Assembly (NCBI GenBank): GCA_021795255.1
Contig: JAJYPQ010000248.1
Span: 1 to 6,324 of the forward strand
Length of the DNA stretch: 6,324 bases
Source: Pseudomonadota bacterium
GTDB taxonomy: Bacteria; Pseudomonadota; Gammaproteobacteria; Acidiferrobacterales; Acidiferrobacteraceae
Direction: 5' to 3'
Made by a program: the position numbers and the translations under genes. The notes under the pieces are model-generated. The model was not told where the DNA came from. It did not search any database and saw only the letters and a list, made by a program, of their open reading frames with translations. Each line of letters begins with the position of its first letter. The stretch's first letter is position 1. This document shows, piece after piece, positions 1 to 6,324 of this stretch.

Positions 1-417
1 CGTCATTCATCGCCCCTTCGGCCGTCTCCCACCAGCGTTTCACCTCCTCGGGATATAACCCGTGGGCGCGACAGTACTCGGCAAGCTCCGCCTCGTTGAG
101 TGCGCGGGTTTCGGCCACTACCGCAATCTTCTGGGCGGCCGAGCGCTTCGTGCCCGATGACTGCTTTGCGGATGGTTTCGGTTTTCCTGCCACGGATCTC
201 TCCCCTTCAATGGCCTTCCTGCGCCAATCGTACAGCGACCAGGCGGAGATGCCAGTCTCCTGCGCCAGTTCCCGGATCGACAGCTCCGGGGATTTGAGCA
301 TCCGGCGCACCACTGATTCCTTACGCTCCACTGCATACTGCGTCATGGTTGACTCCCTTTCGCCCCCTCAAGGTTAAACGAAGAGACGACAGGTATCCTG
401 ACAGAGGGGGTCCACCA
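1..417 (-). mobile_element. IS3-family insertion sequence, left end, partial
   Basis: Read on the minus strand, a likely terminal inverted repeat begins TGGTGGACCCCC at 417, about 70 nt before the OrfA start, a normal distance for this family. CTGTC occurs twice inside it, 12 bp apart (about 388-405), which could be transposase contacts. The tip is inferred from the 5'-TG rule and the distance to OrfA. The other end and the 3-4 bp target duplication are not available to confirm it. Confidence 0.6.
2..346 (-). CDS. IS3-family transposase OrfA, N-terminal part (runs off window)
   Basis: The minus-strand frame from ATG at 346 is open to the left edge and gives 115 residues starting MTQYAVERKESVV. 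Residues about 8-45 form a helix-turn-helix with the motif RELAQETGISAWSLYDWRR, the DNA-binding domain of IS3-family OrfA. Near residues 85-105 the segment LNEAELAEYCRAHGLYPEEV matches the conserved second region of these OrfA proteins. OrfA of this group is usually about 170-180 residues and fuses to the DDE integrase OrfB by programmed -1 frameshifting, so the rest and OrfB should lie left of the window. AAAGGGAG lies 7 nt upstream of the ATG and supports the start. Other frames here have no recognisable product. The family is assigned by recall of motifs, not by a search. Confidence 0.85.
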   Translation of the reverse strand, partial: MTQYAVERKESVVRRMLKSPELSIRELAQETGISAWSLYDWRRKAIEGERSVAGKPKPSAKQSSGTKRSAAQKIAVVAETRALNEAELAEYCRAHGLYPEEVKRWWETAEGAMND

Positions 418-593: not shown

Positions 594-637
594 GAGGGGC
601 GCGATCGGCGCGCCCCGGAACAATCGGAGACACAGTG

Positions 638-1006
638 ATGGCAATCAGTGGTATTGCGAAAACGTTGCCCGCCCGGGTGCTGCAGCACATCGATGAGATT
701 GTCGAGGCCCGCGCCCGGGGCCTGGGCTGGAAGCAAATACTGGATCAGGTGGGCCCCGCGATTGGGCTCGATCCCGCGGCAAGCAGGGCGGAGTCGCTCC
801 TGCGTCAGGCCTGCGAGCGGGCGCGGCGGCAGATCGAGAAGGGGCGGCTGCGGCCCCCGGCGAGTGCGGACGCAGGCCGCCCCAACACACTGGCTCCCGC
901 CGCGCGGACCCGCGGTGGCCCGGGGCCAGCCCCCGCCCCCGCGGGACAGACCGACCTGAGCAACCGGTTTGCAATCCAACGACTGATCAAACAGGAGAAA
1001 GACTAA
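638..1006 (+). CDS. TraK/StbA-like DNA-binding protein (mobilisation/partition)
   Basis: This encodes a 122-residue basic protein. Residues 1-75 look helical and carry Arg-rich segments (EARARGLGWKQIL, RQACERARRQIEKGRLR). A Pro/Ala/Gly linker follows (about 73-103), then a short C-terminal tail, DLSNRFAIQRLIKQEKD. A helical N-terminal DNA-binding part followed by a Pro/Ala-rich region is the layout of RP4 TraK. Being first in a three-gene operon before a ParA-like ATPase and a TraM-like protein matches traKLM (RP4), mobCDE (pTF-FC2) and stbABC (R388). I choose ATG 638 over GTG 635 because CGGAGA at 625-630 is better spaced from it. The stop overlaps the next start (TAATG). Expected role: binding oriT-proximal repeats and autoregulation. 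Similarity is by layout rather than strong motif identity. Confidence 0.6.
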   Translation: MAISGIAKTLPARVLQHIDEIVEARARGLGWKQILDQVGPAIGLDPAASRAESLLRQACERARRQIEKGRLRPPASADAGRPNTLAPAARTRGGPGPAPAPAGQTDLSNRFAIQRLIKQEKD

Positions 1007-1725
1007 TGCTTAAGCGCATCTACATCAGCCACGGCGACAAAGGCGGCGTCGGCAAATCCGTCGTGTCCGCCCTCATCACCGAACGGCTGCTCAGCGGCGG
1101 CGTGACCGTCATCGAAGGCGATCCGACCATGCAGGACGTGCTTGCCCGCTATGCGGACGTTCCGGAGGTCACGCCGGCATTCCTGTCGCTCAATGCGGCA
1201 GGCAACGCAGACAATGCCATCGGCGACCTCGCGGCGTTTCTGGAACAGAACCTGCCGGACTCGGTGGTCGTCAATCTGCCCGCGGGCGCCTCCGAGACGG
1301 TGGACGGGCTCGGCGATCTGATCCGCAGCGTCACCGATGCGCTTGGGTACGCGCTGTTCGTCGTCTATTCGCTCGATATCGGCAAGGCCCCGGCGCTCGG
1401 GTTGAAAAAGTCTTTCGAGTCCGGGCTGATGTCGCACATCGATGCGGACAAGCGCGCCGTGAACTACCCGGCCTACAAGGGCGACCCCGGGAAGTTCGAG
1501 TGGATCACGTTTCCGGAGCGTCAAACCTATCCGGCGCACGAGATCGTCGTCCCCGCCCTCGCCAACCAGGCCGCATTCAAGGCGCTCGACCGGACCCCGG
1601 GCTGCATCGCCACCTTGGCTGACACCGGCGCGGACGGCTGGCTGGTGGTCGACCGCCTGAACGTCAGACGCTGGCTGCCGGTGGCGCTCGCGGCCCTCGA
1701 TCCGCTCTTTAACATGACGGAGTAA
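1006..1725 (+). CDS. ParA-family ATPase, TraL/StbB/MobD-like
   Basis: This encodes a 239-residue cytoplasmic ATPase. Residues 12-18 are the deviant Walker A motif KGGVGKS, with signature lysine K12 and catalytic lysine K17. Residues 33-40 (VTVIEGDP) correspond to the A' strand and residues 87-94 (VVVNLPAG) to the Walker B strand, with Asn where ParA proteins carry Asp. That substitution is in keeping with the divergent TraL/StbB branch rather than true ParA. The length fits RP4 TraL (about 240) and R388 StbB (about 230). StbB affects plasmid positioning and conjugation, while TraL is accessory in IncP transfer. Translation is coupled to the preceding gene by a 1-nt overlap, with AGGAG at 993-997. 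The ATPase family is certain; the TraL/StbB sub-assignment rests on operon context and length. Confidence 0.82.
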   Translation: MLKRIYISHGDKGGVGKSVVSALITERLLSGGVTVIEGDPTMQDVLARYADVPEVTPAFLSLNAAGNADNAIGDLAAFLEQNLPDSVVVNLPAGASETVDGLGDLIRSVTDALGYALFVVYSLDIGKAPALGLKKSFESGLMSHIDADKRAVNYPAYKGDPGKFEWITFPERQTYPAHEIVVPALANQAAFKALDRTPGCIATLADTGADGWLVVDRLNVRRWLPVALAALDPLFNMTE

Positions 1726-1731
1726 ACCCCC

Positions 1732-2469
1732 ATGACCGACGATCCCACACGCAACCACCACGGGGGCCAAGGGGCCCCCACGCTCCGCGACCAGGCCTTG
1801 GCTGCGGTCCGCCCGGATCTGCACGCGACGATGCTGACCGCCGCCGCGGATCTCGGGGTCACCCACAACCAGGACGCGACCTGGCTCATCCTCAGTCACG
1901 GGATGGCCGCCGTCTCCGCCGCCACGGCGGCCGGCGAGGCGGCGGAGAAAGCCACCGCCGAAATCGTTAAGATTCCCGAGCTCGTCTATCGCGGCGCCAC
2001 GCAGGCCGCGAAGGACGTGGCCGGGCAGGTCGCCAAGGCGGGGGAGAAGATCCGGCAGGATTGGGAGACCCGGGGGATCGATCTCGCCAAGGCGGTCGTG
2101 ATCGCGATCGATGAGGCGTCCAAGATCGGAGCGCAGGCCATCACGAACGCGGCGGCGGGGCTGGATGGCGTGGCCAAAGAGCGGTGCGATGCGATGATCC
2201 GGGAATGGCAGACCGCCCTGGCGAACGCCGTGGCGGTGCAGGCCCGGGCGAGTCTCATCGGAAAGCTCGCCCGCAGTTGGGGACTCATCGCCGGCATGAT
2301 CTTCGCCGCCGGCATCGCCGGCGCGGCCGCGACGCTTATGGCGGCGCGCCTCACGGGGCATCTCACCCCCTGGGCGATCCGACTCGCGACCACCGTGTCT
2401 GGGCGACCGAACTGTGGGATGTTGGCGGCGCGCAACGGTCGGGACTATCGGGTCTGTCTCGCGCGGTGA
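1732..2469 (+). CDS. TraM/StbC/MobE-like protein with one membrane helix, enlarged
   Basis: This encodes 245 residues, mostly alanine-rich helix. Residues about 60-180 are charged and helical, probably coiled coil (AAGEAAEKATAEIVKIPELV and following). Residues about 184-206 (LIAGMIFAAGIAGAAATLMA) form a single transmembrane helix near the C-terminus, followed by a short basic tail. Third place after TraK- and TraL-like genes, plus a C-terminal membrane helix, points to the TraM (IncP), MobE (pTF-FC2) and StbC (IncW) group. RP4 TraM is only about 145 residues, so this protein is clearly longer, mainly in the central helical part. It starts 6 nt after the ATPase stop, with ACGGAG just upstream. 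A role anchoring the ATPase or DNA complex to the membrane is inference. Confidence 0.6.
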   Translation: MTDDPTRNHHGGQGAPTLRDQALAAVRPDLHATMLTAAADLGVTHNQDATWLILSHGMAAVSAATAAGEAAEKATAEIVKIPELVYRGATQAAKDVAGQVAKAGEKIRQDWETRGIDLAKAVVIAIDEASKIGAQAITNAAAGLDGVAKERCDAMIREWQTALANAVAVQARASLIGKLARSWGLIAGMIFAAGIAGAAATLMAARLTGHLTPWAIRLATTVSGRPNCGMLAARNGRDYRVCLAR

Positions 2470-2525
2470 CCTCACCGGTTCTCGCTTTACGCCGAGGTTC
2501 AGCCACGCAGGAGCGCCATCACACG

Positions 2526-2550
2526 AGCCCCGCTTCGGCGGGGCTTTTTT
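2526..2550 (+). terminator. Intrinsic terminator of the Tra/Stb operon
   Basis: Perfect 8-bp stem AGCCCCGC (2526-2533) and GCGGGGCT (2538-2545) closed by a TTCG tetraloop, followed by a T run to 2550. It lies 57 nt after the last stop of the plus-strand operon and 38 nt before the end of the convergent O/P genes. The minus strand has A's on the entry side but no T run after the stem, so it acts mainly in the plus direction. Confidence 0.92.
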
Positions 2551-2587
2551 GGGGCATCCTGTCCATCCCAGACCCCCGACGTAAACT

Positions 2588-3088
2588 TCACCCGCCCTTG
2601 CCGGTGGCGACTGTTTGTGTGAGCGCCGCCCGAATCTTGCGCAGGTATTCCTCGCGCTGCTCCAGTGTCAACGCCGGCCGGGGCAGGGCGATGTAGGCAA
2701 GCTCCGGGCGTATGCGGGCTTCTTGGTGACAGCGCGGCAGGCGTTCCGGCATGCACATCGCCCGAAACGCCGGTAGCGACCGGGGCCACTCCGTGCCGGA
2801 TGCGATGCAGGTTCGAAGACCCGCAGCCAGTTGCGCTCCCGTGATCCCCCGCAACCCGCCTGCCCAGGTTTGCGCGACGTCCGTCAACGACTCGTCCCGG
2901 CGGGCCGCACGCTCACCAAACACCGCGGAAAACTTATGTCCGTACAGGTGGGTCAATCTTTCCCAGAGATTCACGATCATTCGCGCATTGAGACTGCTTG
3001 CGCTCACGTTGCTCGAACTCGCGTCGCGATGCGCTGGCGCGTTCCGCGAGGCTGGGCCTTTGTGGATGTGCTGACCGATGTGCCGCAT
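2588..3088 (-). CDS. Phage replication protein P-like helicase loader
   Basis: This encodes 166 residues from ATG 3088, with GGAGGG 7 nt upstream on the minus strand. The core at residues about 37-90 (MIVNLWERLTHLYGHKF, then TWAGGLRGITGAQLAAGLRTC and WPRSLPAFRAMCMPE) matches the lambda P-type family found in phages, plasmids and integrative elements. Lambda P brings the DnaB helicase to the origin through the O protein, and this protein should do the same. The C-terminal tail ends in a short helix (LEQREEYLRKIRAAL). An upstream in-frame ATG at 3214 exists but lacks an equally good binding site, and residues before about 36 are low-complexity. ATG 2980 (M37), at the domain start, is an alternative without a visible binding site. 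It follows the O-like gene in the same direction and overlaps its end by 155 nt. Confidence 0.7.
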   Translation of the reverse strand: MRHIGQHIHKGPASRNAPAHRDASSSNVSASSLNARMIVNLWERLTHLYGHKFSAVFGERAARRDESLTDVAQTWAGGLRGITGAQLAAGLRTCIASGTEWPRSLPAFRAMCMPERLPRCHQEARIRPELAYIALPRPALTLEQREEYLRKIRAALTQTVATGKGG

Positions 3089-3710
3089 GGTTCGTCCCTC
3101 CGTGTCGGGATGGTTGATGAGGCGCCCGCTCGCGCGCGATCCACCACCGCCACTCCGCCTCCCACGATCGGCAAGCCCTGCGGGCCGTCCCGTAGGTTTT
3201 GAACGTGGCCGCAATGCGCTTGAGATCGCCCGCGAGTTCCGGGCGCGCTTTGTTTGCCCATGCTTCCCAATCTCGGGGCAGGGCCCAGTGTTCAGGCAGG
3301 GGCCCTGAGGCCACCGCCTCCTCCCCGGCTGGGTTTAATATTTTCTTTTCAACACTGGAGGCCTGGGCAGAGAACGCTGCCCCGCTCTCTTTTTTCTGTT
3401 GAGTGTTCTTCTGTTGTGTGTTCTTTTGTTTATTCTCTATAGCGTCGAGGAAACCGACATCCGGTGAACCGACGTCCGGAAAACCGGAGTCCGGTTTTTG
3501 GACTCCGGTCGGCTGGGGGGTGTCATAGACGAACGTCTGGGTCGACCAGCGACCGTCTTTATCCTGTTTTTTGATGGTCCGGATATAGCCCGCTTCCCGC
3601 AGCTCCCGCAGGGCCGTCAATATGGCGCCCCGTCCCTCCCGAGCCTCCCGGGCGAGGTCGGCGGCGGTCATCTGAAATCCGTCGGCATTGGACAGCAGCT
3701 GCACCAGCAC
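2934..3710 (-). CDS. Phage replication protein O-like initiator, N-terminus truncated
   Basis: The frame has 258 residues from GTG 3710. Residues about 14-46 are a winged helix-turn-helix (MTAADLAREAREGRGAILTA, then LREAGYIRTIKK). A flexible linker (66-112) is encoded by the candidate origin and contains PDSGFPDVGSPDVGFLD and KNTQQKNTQQKK. Residues about 147-193 form a Trp-rich domain (LPRDWEAWANKARPEL, then SWEAEWRWWIARE) typical of O/DnaT-like replication proteins, and a basic tail follows with PSLAERASASRREFEQRE. Lambda O binds origin iterons and recruits P-DnaB. Homologues usually have some 30 residues before the segment VLVQLLSNADGF. Here the frame hits stops TAG and TAA just upstream of GTG 3710, inside the palindrome 3704-3766, so the true N-terminus looks lost. 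No ribosome binding site precedes GTG 3710, and whether the remnant is expressed is open. Confidence 0.7.
   Translation of the reverse strand: MLVQLLSNADGFQMTAADLAREAREGRGAILTALRELREAGYIRTIKKQDKDGRWSTQTFVYDTPQPTGVQKPDSGFPDVGSPDVGFLDAIENKQKNTQQKNTQQKKESGAAFSAQASSVEKKILNPAGEEAVASGPLPEHWALPRDWEAWANKARPELAGDLKRIAATFKTYGTARRACRSWEAEWRWWIARERAPHQPSRHGGTNHAAHRSAHPQRPSLAERASASRREFEQRERKQSQCANDRESLGKIDPPVRT
3341..3440. other. Candidate DNA-unwinding element of the O-type origin
   Basis: Two parts (3341-3358 and 3388-3440) are rich in T on the plus strand and purines on the minus strand, inside GC-rich surroundings. The segment includes a 15-bp tandem repeat, CTGTTGAGTGTTCTT (3396-3410) and CTGTTGTGTGTTCTT (3411-3425), followed by TTGTTTATTCTCTAT. 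It lies directly beside the iterons on the downstream side of the gene, the same order as in lambda (iterons, then A+T-rich purine-skewed DNA). I infer strand opening here; no DnaA box was found. Confidence 0.5.
3451..3510. repeat. Origin iterons within the O-like gene
   Basis: Three consecutive 15-bp units at 3451-3465, 3466-3480 and 3481-3495 share the consensus RAACCGRMRTCCGGW. A fourth copy is inverted: GGACTCCGGT (3500-3509) is the perfect complement of ACCGGAGTCC (3483-3492). Repeated sites inside an O-type initiator gene are the hallmark of lambda-type origins, where O binds its own coding sequence. The encoded protein segment is a repetitive Pro/Asp/Gly linker, which suggests that the DNA sequence rather than the peptide is selected. 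Confidence 0.65.
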
Positions 3711-3766
3711 CCGTTACTATGTTCATGCCCCTACAATAGGGGCATGAACATAGTAACGGGTGCTGG
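3704..3766. repeat. Perfect palindrome, 30-bp arms with 3-nt centre
   Basis: The left arm 3704-3733 and right arm 3737-3766 are exact reverse complements around the centre CAA. The arms begin CCAGCACCCGTTAC and end ATGCCCCTA. It can form a long hairpin or cruciform. The outer bases of the left arm still read as O-gene codons (GTGCTGG on the minus strand) and the rest carries stops in that frame, so the palindrome marks the point where the gene was cut. Possible origins are two abutted ends of a mobile element (IS circle junctions have such short spacers), a fold-back duplication at a broken end, or a resolution or telomere-like site. I do not recognise the arm as an end of a known IS. Confidence 0.95.
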
Positions 3767-4065
3767 GAGGTCCCGTCGCGCTTCACGAGGGCCGGCGCAC
3801 AATCGATGTCCTTGTTGGATCTAGCGTTCACACATTTGGCGAAGACTACAAGTCGGCCGTTAACCACGTGGATGCCACATTGACAGACGCGCGAGAGATG
3901 GATCTTGATAGGGATGCGGATGCCGGCTTTATCTGGGCAGTGACGCCAGCCCATCAGACGGAGGATTTTGTTACCGCAAGGATTTTTTTGAAGCAGATCA
4001 CCCGGGCGGTACATCTGGTCGTCATGGTGCAGCAGTGCTGGATTTTATTACGATCAAGTAAATAG
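3760..4065 (+). CDS. Unrecognised 101-aa protein
   Basis: The frame is open from GTG 3760, in the right arm of the palindrome, to TAG 4063-4065. The sequence, for example RRTIDVLVGSSVHTFGEDYK and DADAGFIWAVTPAHQTEDF, looks like a folded soluble protein, but I recognise no family, signal peptide or membrane helix. Start codons are poor: GTG 3760 has no ribosome binding site, and ATG 3898 would leave only 56 residues. It may be the 3' remnant of a gene whose beginning was lost at the palindrome, mirroring the loss of the O-gene start on the other side. The opposite strand is also open (about 3770-4014) but looks less protein-like. Confidence 0.3.
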   Translation: MLGGPVALHEGRRTIDVLVGSSVHTFGEDYKSAVNHVDATLTDAREMDLDRDADAGFIWAVTPAHQTEDFVTARIFLKQITRAVHLVVMVQQCWILLRSSK

Positions 4066-4199: not shown

Positions 4200-4478
4200 T
4201 TGATCCAGAGCTTCCGGCACAAGGGACTGAAACGGCTCTATGAGAAGGACATAGCCAAGGGCCTGTCGGCGGATATGGTTCCGAAGATCGAACGGATTCT
4301 AGCGCGCCTCGATGTAGCGGCAGGGCCGGAGATGATGAACCTGCCCGGCTATGGCTTGCATCCCCTGAAAGGGGGGCTGAAGGGCTTCTGGTCCGTGTGG
4401 GTCACGGGCAACTGGAGGATCATCTTCCGCTTCGACGGAGGCAATGCGTGTGATGTTGATCTGGTCGATTACCACTGA
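4200..4478 (+). CDS. higB: HigB toxin, ribosome-dependent mRNA endonuclease
   Basis: This is a 92-residue RelE-superfamily toxin of the HigB (host inhibition of growth) type, which cuts mRNA in the ribosomal A site. The start is TTG 4200, with GGGAGGA at 4184-4190. It gives the usual N-terminus [15 protein letters not shown], and no in-frame ATG fits the family. Residues implicated in Proteus HigB catalysis are present at the same positions: H54 and K57 in YGLHPLKG, R73 in GNWRIIFRF, and D90-Y91-H92 at the C-terminus, so the toxin looks intact. The toxin gene precedes the antitoxin, the normal order for higBA, with a 19-nt gap to higA. The start is the only uncertain point. Confidence 0.95.
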
Positions 4479-4497
4479 CCAGAATGGAGGTAGTGAA

Positions 4498-4809
4498 ATG
4501 ACGATGAAAAATCCGCCGCACCCCGGACTATCGGTGCGCTCTGATTGCCTAGAGCCGCTTGGCCTCTCCGTCACTAAAGGGGCGGAGGTCCTCGGCGTAA
4601 CCCGTCAGGCCCTGAACAACCTTGTGAACGGCAAGGCGGGAATCTCGCCGGAAATGGCGATCCGCCTCGACAAAGCCTTCGGCGGCACGGCCGAGGGTTG
4701 GCTCTCTCTTCAGACGGCCTTCGATCTCGCGCAGGCGCGCAAGAAAGAAAGGTCTATTGCAGTAAAGCGTTATTCGAAAGACGCGGCTAATGCCACTGAA
4801 GCGCGGTGA
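4498..4809 (+). CDS. higA: HigA antitoxin, XRE-type HTH repressor
   Basis: This is a 103-residue antitoxin. The Xre/Cro-type helix-turn-helix spans residues about 22-62 ([18 protein letters not shown], then [20 protein letters not shown]), followed by the dimerisation motif [20 protein letters not shown]. The short N-terminal arm, [10 protein letters not shown], is typical of HigA. The start ATG 4498 has GGAGG at 4486-4490; an upstream ATG at 4444 lies within higB and is not needed. It should neutralise HigB and repress the operon through the inverted repeat at 4145-4163. The basic tail ([16 protein letters not shown]) is slightly longer than in short HigA proteins. After the stop, sequence passes directly into the decayed IS end. 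Confidence 0.95.
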
Positions 4810-5340: not shown

Positions 5341-5607
5341 GTGCGCTTCCAATTCGACCCTAGAAAAGCCGCCAGCAACTTGAAGAAACACGAGGTGTCC
5401 TTCGCGGATGCAGAAGGCGTGTTTTACGACACCTTCGCGATTCACCAACTGGATCTCGACTCAGCAGATGAGGAACGGTTTATCGCCGTCGGTATGGGTA
5501 GCGCGGGGATAGTCCTGGTTGTTATCTATACGCTTCGTGGCGAGGAAATCCGGCTTATATCGGTTCGCCGCGCTACGCGAAACGAGGTTAAAAAGTATGA
5601 GAGCTGA
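5341..5607 (+). CDS. brnT: BrnT toxin, RelE-fold ribonuclease
   Basis: This is an 88-residue type II toxin of the BrnT family, a RelE-like RNase that inhibits translation. The family N-terminus is clear (MRFQFDPRKAASNLKKH, then SFADAEGVFYD), as are the central DEERFIAVG (43-51) and the C-terminal motif IRLISVRRATRNEVKKYE (70-87). The start is GTG 5341: an in-frame TAA sits immediately upstream (5338-5340), so nothing earlier is possible and the family N-terminus begins exactly here. No Shine-Dalgarno precedes it and the -10 box ends 6 nt before it, so the mRNA is probably leaderless. The stop overlaps the brnA start by 11 nt, giving coupled translation. Confidence 0.93.
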   Translation: MRFQFDPRKAASNLKKHEVSFADAEGVFYDTFAIHQLDLDSADEERFIAVGMGSAGIVLVVIYTLRGEEIRLISVRRATRNEVKKYES

Positions 5608-5893
5608 ATACAATTTTTCAAAAGGAAAACGAGGTGCGCTAGTATCCCCGAAAGGAAAGACGCGCATCACAATTTACATTGATGACTCAGTACTTAATGA
5701 GTTTCGTGCCAGAGCGGAGCGGGTGGGCGCTGGATATCAGACAATGATGAATGAGGTACTGAAGGCATTCTTGGAAAAAAACGAGAAGCCAGTCACCGCT
5801 GCCGTATTGCGCCAAATTATCCGTGAAGAGCTTCCACAGGCATCGCGGCCAACACGTCGTCTCACCGGACGGGCAAAGACAGCGCGTCGGTGA
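5597..5893 (+). CDS. brnA: BrnA antitoxin, ribbon-helix-helix repressor
   Basis: This is a 98-residue antitoxin. The N-terminal segment MRAEYNFSKGKRGAL is the stereotyped toxin-contact region of BrnA. A ribbon-helix-helix fold follows (TRITIYID at 22-29, helices about 30-42 and 45-60 with RVGAGYQTMMNEVLKAFL), then a basic tail (RPTRRLTGRAKTARR). I chose ATG 5597 because it gives this family N-terminus and has CGAGGT about 8 nt upstream; the open frame extends back to 5519 inside brnT but those residues are not family sequence. BrnA neutralises BrnT and represses the promoter at 5306-5334. The tail beyond residue 65 is longer than I would expect for a minimal BrnA. Confidence 0.93.
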   Translation: MRAEYNFSKGKRGALVSPKGKTRITIYIDDSVLNEFRARAERVGAGYQTMMNEVLKAFLEKNEKPVTAAVLRQIIREELPQASRPTRRLTGRAKTARR

Positions 5894-6196: not shown

Positions 6197-6246
6197 CAGC
6201 CCTCATAATGCTGAGGTCGGTGGTTCGAGTCCACCCATAGCCACCA
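6197..6246 (+). tRNA. tRNA-Met(CAT) 3' half, probable attachment site
   Basis: From the anticodon arm onward the sequence is a normal elongator-type tRNA-Met: stem CAGCC (6197-6201), loop CTCATAA with anticodon CAT (6204-6206), stem TGCTG, variable loop AGGTC, T arm GGTGG-TTCGAGT-CCACC, acceptor strand CATAGCC, then ACCA to 6246. The expected 5' half (GGCTATG acceptor strand and D arm) is absent: 6171-6196 does not fold with it. The last stem pair (C6201 with T6209) is also mismatched, suggesting that true tRNA identity starts around the anticodon loop. This is the footprint left at the distal end by tyrosine-recombinase integration into a tRNA gene. Host DNA would then lie to the right, where a 12-bp palindrome GCTGTCGACAGC (6268-6279) is the only structure seen. 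Confidence 0.85.
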
Positions 6247-6324
6247 TAAATCAATTATTTGCGGTAAGCTGTCGACAGCCAGCAGGGATTCTGGCCCGGT
6301 TTGGATCCGGACAAGAGTCGAGTT

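What the first reader, a model, noticed from the sequence alone, without database searches (positions are those of the whole stretch)
3341..3510. Lambda-type replication origin embedded in the O-like gene
Three 15-bp iterons plus one inverted copy (3451-3510) sit next to a purine/pyrimidine-skewed A+T-rich segment with its own 15-bp tandem repeat (3396-3425), all inside the linker-coding part of an O-like initiator gene. Lambda and relatives have this order, but the iteron sequence and 15-bp period here are not ones I recognise. It would give an element with mobilisation genes an autonomous O/P replicon.
Basis: partly seen in the sequence, partly recalled or inferred. Interest (0 to 1): 0.75.

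Follow-up and report, generated by a model that had tools for sequence, protein, structure and literature searches.

The report
Replication origin inside phage-type initiator gene
A short array of 15-base repeats followed by an easily melted stretch, hidden inside a phage-type replication-initiator gene, is very probably the site where that initiator starts DNA copying; the layout is known from phages lambda and TP901-1, a similar repeat core turns up in relatives from very different bacteria, and the initiator gene in this copy is damaged.

Summary
In detail: three 15-bp units plus one inverted copy fill 3451-3510, beside an A-rich segment (3385-3446), inside the linker of an O-like gene (3710-2934, minus strand) followed by a P-like gene. 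In this window alone the DNA repeat is no better than its repeated protein forces (P=0.25). Relatives decide it. In 86 non-redundant initiator genes the core CGG-W3/4-CCG occurs 53 times in the linker against 15.8 in synonymous recodings (0 of 500 reach it). In two phage families synonymous sites over iterons and A-rich box reach 0.90-1.00 identity against medians of 0.62-0.63; a Rhodococcus group does not. The 80alpha record marks a putative origin at this place in a related gene, and TP901-1 Rep, a relative with 15-bp repeats, is reported to use in-gene repeats as origin. So: an initiator-gene origin of the lambda/TP901-1 kind, a new member. This copy probably cannot drive itself: its initiator lacks about 33 N-terminal residues and breaks off at a 30-bp palindrome, so 'autonomous replicon' is not supported.

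The parts
3481..3495 (-). iteron unit 1 (codes PDSGF)
3466..3480 (-). iteron unit 2 (codes PDVGS)
3451..3465 (-). iteron unit 3 (codes PDVGF)
3496..3510 (+). inverted iteron copy (codes TGVQK on the minus strand); forms a 10-bp perfect dyad with unit 1
   Evidence: I5, I7
3385..3446 (-). A-rich segment, candidate DNA-unwinding element (36 A, 4 T on the coding strand)
3394..3430 (-). 15-bp tandem repeat inside the A-rich segment (QQKNT); found in some close relatives only
2934..3710 (-). O-like initiator ORF (258 aa from GTG), N-terminally truncated by about 33 residues relative to relatives P0002-P0022
2588..3088 (-). P-like helicase-loader gene (166 aa from ATG); overlaps the O-like ORF by 155 nt in another frame
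   Evidence: phrog_109 P-like E 1.7e-8, phrog_1524 E 6.7e-14 (on the longer ORF from TTG); start chosen and a GGAGGG read upstream
3704..3766 (.). perfect palindrome, 30-nt arms, 3-nt loop, at the point where the O-like gene breaks off
635..2469 (+). three-gene block (ORFs 635-1006, 1006-1725 with a P-loop, 1732-2469); relatives of the last two lie about 4 kb from the O-like gene in L001 (30% and 35% identity)

Best explanation
The feature is the replication origin of a phage-type initiator module, carried inside the initiator gene. The winged-helix domain of the O-like protein binds the 15-bp iterons (core CGG-W4-CCG, a dyad with an A/T-rich centre) that lie in its own linker-coding DNA. Several bound copies wrap or bend the DNA, the flanking A-rich segment melts, and the P-like loader brings in the host replicative helicase. 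The linker protein encoded there is predicted disordered and is mostly a by-product of the DNA code. Shown here: the anatomy, DNA-level conservation in relatives, the low-GC segment, the P-like neighbour. Inferred: binding, melting and loading (by analogy with TP901-1, Tuc2009 and lambda). In this window the initiator is truncated, so the origin is probably a relic or would need an initiator supplied by a related element (inference).
For: Synonymous constraint: phage family A (9 genes) has 8-codon windows of 0.90-1.00 synonymous identity from column 109 to 131, over the later iteron words and the A-rich box, against a median of 0.63; family B (9 genes) 0.92-1.00 at 120-125 and 134-151 (median 0.62); a Streptomyces group (6 genes) 0.90-1.00 at 154-158 and 163-170, over the end of the array and a CTAGTTAGTAAC box (median 0.68). 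Window against L001: 20 of 20 comparable codons identical in the iteron segment against 125 of 150 elsewhere (Fisher P=0.047). Motif: 53 observed against 15.8+-3.9, 0 of 500 recodings; spacers N3, N6, N7, N8 not enriched. CGG-N4/5-CCG cores 15 bp apart: 37 against 6.7; 30 apart: 21 against 4.9 (40 recodings). De novo 8-mers beyond the synonymous null: GGAAAACC (22 genes against 6.5), GAAAACCG (19 against 4.2) (60 recodings). The gene-wide GC minimum lies in the linker in 72 of 82 genes (expected share 0.32), and is lower than synonymous recoding at P<0.05 in 34 of 82. Copy number varies by whole 5-aa units among close relatives. Linker pLDDT is about 30 in a model of P0002 whose winged helix is confident. 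The 80alpha record places a putative rep_origin at 1059-1284 inside the CDS 824-1594, where GGAAAAACC repeats lie at 15-bp steps; that gene was reached through the Gordonia phage Morgana RepA, itself a relative of the window protein. TP901-1 rep is a tblastn relative (E 1e-6, residues 1-86) with KKPDSDFPDVAFPDVGN in the linker; passages of PMC8965321 state that TP901-1 ORF13 and Tuc2009 ORF16 bind direct repeats within their genes that serve as ori.
Against: I know of no binding or replication test in the window's own family. In the window alone neither the repeat (P=0.25) nor the A-rich dip (P=0.24) exceeds what the protein implies. Only one close relative with DNA (L001) was available, and P=0.047 is weak. 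The Rhodococcus group (8 genes) shows no window of 0.9 or more in the linker; families A and Streptomyces also have a high window near the gene's 3' end that this reading does not explain (columns 228-232 and 223-226). 53 of 86 genes do not individually pass the lag-15 test at P<0.05, and 47 of 86 have no pair of cores 15 or 30 nt apart by a loose pattern. Codons after 170 also show an excess of the motif (9 against 3.6; 2 of 500 recodings reach it). N4/N5 spacing variants of the reverse order, CCG-N-CGG, are enriched too, so the exact half-site pairing is not settled. The 86 genes are not phylogenetically independent.
Confidence: 0.83

Rival explanations
1. The repeats are protein repeats only: a Pro-Gly-Asp linker that expanded by slippage, so the DNA similarity is a by-product.
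For: In the window the DNA repeat equals the synonymous expectation (P=0.25); most arrays keep one reading frame (31 of the 39 genes with cores 15 or 30 nt apart).
Against: Synonymous sites are nearly frozen there in two phage families and at the end of the array in a Streptomyces group; the motif exceeds 500 of 500 synonymous recodings; 8 of 39 genes carry the core in another frame, though loose matching makes some of these ambiguous; the linker is predicted disordered.
Confidence: 0.07
2. The sites are an operator: the initiator binds its own gene only to regulate transcription, and replication starts elsewhere.
For: Winged-helix proteins often autoregulate (established knowledge); DNA-level constraint alone does not tell an operator from an origin.
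Against: In intact relatives the array sits about 100 codons into the gene; no sigma-70-like site was found in 2450-3900, a weak point since 0.3 are expected by chance and other promoter types are not covered; the AT-rich segment and a P-like gene go with it; related phages have origins annotated as putative or reported in this place.
Confidence: 0.06
3. The inverted copy and unit 1 form an RNA hairpin that controls translation or transcription.
For: The predicted RNA fold is somewhat more stable than shuffles (z -2.28, 4 of 200 shuffles as stable).
Against: Phage family B shows direct units only, and in family A the arms do not all stay complementary (alignment, read by eye); no Rfam match in the window.
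Confidence: 0.03

Closest known systems
Lactococcus phages TP901-1 (ORF13/Rep) and Tuc2009 (Rep2009) replisome organizers with in-gene origins
   Same: Detectable homology of the winged-helix domain with TP901-1 Rep (E 1e-6); in TP901-1 repeats in the linker with 15-bp period and nearly the same encoded words, then AT-rich DNA; in-gene repeats reported as ori (passages of PMC8965321).
   Different: Low-GC lactococcal phage; the core is looser (GG/CC ends, not CGG/CCG); the next gene there is a small ORF14, not an annotated P-like loader. Tuc2009 was not examined as sequence.
Phage lambda O/P origin
   Same: Iterons in the middle of the initiator gene, each a dyad with an A-tract, AT-rich flank on the same side, P gene next (L122; passages of PMC7466680).
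   Different: Lambda iterons are annotated as 18 bp, at steps of 20-24 bp, with other half-sites; O and P overlap by 4 nt against 155 nt here.
RepA_N plasmids such as pSK41
   Same: Winged-helix N-terminal domain, Rep boxes centrally inside rep, linker dispensable for replication, separate C-terminal domain (passages of PMC5703833).
Staphylococcus phage 80alpha possible replisome organizer
   Same: Putative origin annotated inside the initiator gene at the linker, GGAAAAACC repeats at 15-bp steps.
   Different: AT-rich gene, DnaC gene next; related to the window protein only through an intermediate.

Membership tests
Lambda-type O/P origin | Origin layout inside the initiator gene: iterons followed by an AT-rich tract | tested here: met
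   comparison with L122
Lambda-type O/P origin | P helicase-loader gene directly downstream | tested here: met
   phrog_109 P-like, E 1.7e-8
Lambda-type O/P origin | 18-19-bp inverted-repeat iterons of the lambda sequence | tested here: not met
   15-bp units, CGG-W4-CCG core against ATCCCTCAAAACGAGGGA
Lambda-type O/P origin | Initiator of the O protein family | tested here: inconclusive
   phrog_345 'replication initiation O-like' E 7e-6 (window) and 6.5e-8 (P0002), but better matches to other initiator families; not aligned with lambda O itself
TP901-1/Tuc2009 in-gene origin | Homologous winged-helix initiator | tested here: met
   TP901-1: tblastn E 1e-6, residues 1-86, 31% identity
TP901-1/Tuc2009 in-gene origin | Direct repeats within the initiator gene | tested here: met
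TP901-1/Tuc2009 in-gene origin | Initiator binds the repeats and they are needed for replication | not testable with these tools
   reported for TP901-1 and Tuc2009 (passages); needs the bench here
RepA_N plasmid replicon | RepA_N domain by sequence | tested here: not met
   no Pfam RepA_N match listed at E<=1 (window, truncated) or E<=0.1 (P0002 and four relatives)
RepA_N plasmid replicon | RepA_N winged-helix fold | tested here: inconclusive

The most novel reading that the evidence does not exclude
One initiator-iteron pairing, a winged-helix initiator with a CGG-W4-CCG site in 15-bp register inside its own linker plus a TAGTAA/GTACTGAT/CTATCTAA-type melting box, has been kept across Pseudomonadota, Actinomycetota and many phages (with a looser core in Bacillota phages), under different C-terminal domains and loaders. 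It would be a widespread origin cassette that can be read straight from the gene, and would predict origins for actinobacterial phages and islands in which none has been found.
Probability: 0.45. Interest if true: 0.7.

Novelty: new member of a known kind. Interest (0 to 1): 0.5.

Why it matters
It turns an unannotated linker in a widespread family of phage and island initiators into a predicted, testable origin. Wetzel and colleagues (PMC7157519, passages) found no repeated motifs between the tail genes and parS-L of RepA mycobacteriophages and judged the origin to lie just upstream of repA or within it; the pattern here gives a concrete place to look, though I did not examine those repA genes. 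It also shows DNA constraint shaping a protein linker, so linker residues of such proteins should not be read as protein function.

Tried and rejected
A DNA search of the O-like region in plasmids, a close-relative scan of viral contigs and an exact 24-mer scan of viral contigs found nothing. No solved structure matches the family profile by sequence at E<=1. ARAGORN found no tRNA and Rfam nothing. Foldseek against the PDB gave no match at E<=0.001. I looked for a link between a recognition-helix motif and presence of an array; a crude regular expression gave arrays in 21 of 47 genes with the motif and 20 of 44 without it, no association, and it missed many helices, so I draw nothing from it. 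Of the 188 gene pairs only the first 60 were printed; the fixed 30-codon frame used there misses the array in Streptomyces, where pairs do not lean towards conservation. In one search my P-like query was translated in the wrong frame, so its row is ignored. Ten literature searches listed no report of a shared iteron core across phyla that I recognised from titles and abstracts; the library lacks most subscription journals, so this is no proof of absence. Ostergaard 2001 and Weigel and Seitz 2006 were seen only as citations.

Full report
What is there. The minus strand of 3710-2934 encodes a 258-residue O-like protein. Its PHROG matches at E<=1 are mostly DNA-binding and replication-initiation proteins, including 'replication initiation O-like'; Pfam gives only sub-threshold winged-helix matches. 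The next gene, 3088-2588, matches a P-like helicase loader (start). The best 15-base self-similarity of the whole window is there and 0 of 200 shuffles reach it. The A-rich neighbour is real (36 A, 4 T in 62 bases), as is its own 15-bp repeat.

Does the DNA matter, or only the protein? A repeated protein forces repeated DNA. In the window alone the two cannot be told apart: lag-15 identity 0.62 against 0.59 for synonymous recodings, P=0.25. I therefore gathered relatives by their winged-helix domain (alignment A2, which stops before the linker): 40 loci in genomes, 50 in viral contigs, and matches in 13 of 369 and 6 of 149 whole genomes searched, G001 and G002 themselves counted. One plasmid and five phage records found with whole proteins were added (L116-L121). 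111 genes of at least 400 nt, in frame and free of N, were kept and reduced to 86 by shared 12-mers; 79 of the 86 came by the winged helix alone, the other seven being the window and L116-L121. Dropped beforehand: genes under 400 nt (among them L002, which has a clear array) and duplicate loci L091-L093 and L095.

Results on these 86. Lag-15 DNA identity exceeds the synonymous null at P<0.05 in 33 of 86, and 15 is the best (or tied best) of the lags 12, 15, 18 and 21 in 65 of 86. The core CGG-W3/4-CCG is found 53 times in codons 75-170, in 30 genes, against 15.8+-3.9 in recodings; none of 500 reaches it. Codons 0-75 show 4 against 2.5 (134 of 500 reach it); codons after 170 show 9 against 3.6 (2 of 500 reach it). 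Leaving out the window and L001 gives 53 again, because their cores fall outside the codon range or the strict pattern. Other spacers (N3, N6, N7, N8) are not enriched, while the reverse order CCG-N4/N5-CGG is, as expected of a regular array, so the half-site pairing is open. Pairs of CGG-N4/5-CCG cores are 15 bp apart 37 times (null 6.7) and 30 apart 21 times (null 4.9). An unguided 8-mer count against synonymous recoding recovers GGAAAACC and GAAAACCG, and also TAGTAACC (10 genes against 0.2), CTATCTAA (13 against 0.6) and GTACTGAT (7 against 0.0), a second element in or near the AT-rich part; related genes are counted apart in these numbers, so they are not probabilities.

Direct synonymous conservation. 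In phage family A (9 genes) 8-codon windows starting at columns 109-131 have 0.90-1.00 synonymous identity (also columns 101 and 105); the median of all windows is 0.63. A short high stretch at columns 228-232, near the end of the gene, is unexplained. Family B (9 genes) has 0.92-1.00 at columns 120-125 and 134-151, median 0.62. The Streptomyces group (6 genes) has 0.90-1.00 at 154-158 and 163-170 and again at 223-226, median 0.68. The Rhodococcus group (8 genes) has none in the linker. Between the window and L001, the only close relative with DNA, all 20 comparable codons in the iteron segment are identical against 125 of 150 elsewhere (P=0.047). By blastn the iteron segment matches some distant genes: 90% over 41 nt in phage contig L060 and 87.5% over 40 nt in Streptomyces L031 and L032; closer relatives and a few short matches fall in the winged-helix part.

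Known relatives. The 80alpha record annotates a putative origin at 1059-1284 of L123 within the CDS 824-1594; that stretch has GGAAAAACC repeats at 15-bp steps and then ACT/AAT-rich DNA. It was found with the Gordonia phage Morgana RepA as query, which is itself a match of the window protein. TP901-1 Rep, a relative by tblastn, has KKPDSDFPDVAFPDVGN in 15-bp units followed by AT-rich DNA; a later paper says that TP901-1 ORF13 and Tuc2009 ORF16 bind direct repeats within their genes that act as origin (passages of PMC8965321). Lambda has the same order with other iterons (passages of PMC7466680). RepA_N plasmid pSK41 has Rep boxes inside rep (passages of PMC5703833). So the kind is known and this is a new member. 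In the window's close family the repeat block varies by whole 5-residue units (P0009, P0014, P0018, P0019 longer; P0021 shorter).

State of this copy. Relatives P0002-P0022 are 276-295 residues and begin about 33 residues earlier; here the frame is closed by stops directly upstream at a perfect 30-bp palindrome, 3704-3766. Part of the winged helix is missing, so I infer that this initiator is not functional. P0001 (95% identical) starts at the same residue, so the break may be shared, or may only reflect a short contig. Genome G001, which holds L001, has a second O-like copy broken at the first iteron word (PTGV; L094; protein P0048). The 'autonomous' claim thus fails for this copy, though not for its family. 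No mending was attempted.

Noticed in passing
window 3704-3766: Perfect palindrome with 30-nt arms and a 3-nt loop at the O-like gene's broken end; the gene-side arm includes a few gene-derived bases. Real insertion scar or assembly fold-back is undecided.
   Followed up: partly
window 2934-3088: P-like and O-like reading frames overlap by 155 nt in different frames (4 nt in lambda).
   Followed up: partly
L128 7465-8094 (G001:C9): Second O-like copy in the genome of L001 that ends at the first iteron word and runs into unrelated sequence, with a HigBA-like pair (about 32% identity) and a 75% identical transposase nearby.
   Followed up: partly
window 4200-4809: HigB-like toxin (E 1.1e-15) and HTH antitoxin (E 3.8e-10) pair.
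   Followed up: no
window 5341-5893: BrnT/BrnA toxin-antitoxin pair (E 1.5e-25 and 4.8e-11).
   Followed up: no
window 6200-6247: Looks by eye like the 3' half of a tRNA gene ending CCACCA, a possible attachment site; ARAGORN reports no tRNA.
   Followed up: partly
window 2-346: Start of a transposase with HTH_Tnp_1 (E 2.6e-12); a 75% identical copy lies in L128.
   Followed up: no
Streptomyces, Rhodococcus, phage and plasmid loci (for example L022, L007, L043, L116), just after the iterons: AT-rich boxes (CTAGTTAGTAAC, AAGTACTGAT or CAGTACTGAT, CTATCTAAGAAG) beyond synonymous expectation as 8-mers; may be the strand-opening signal.
   Followed up: partly
phage family A columns 228-240 and Streptomyces columns 223-234 of the alignments: Short stretches near the 3' end of the initiator genes with high synonymous identity, unexplained.
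   Followed up: no
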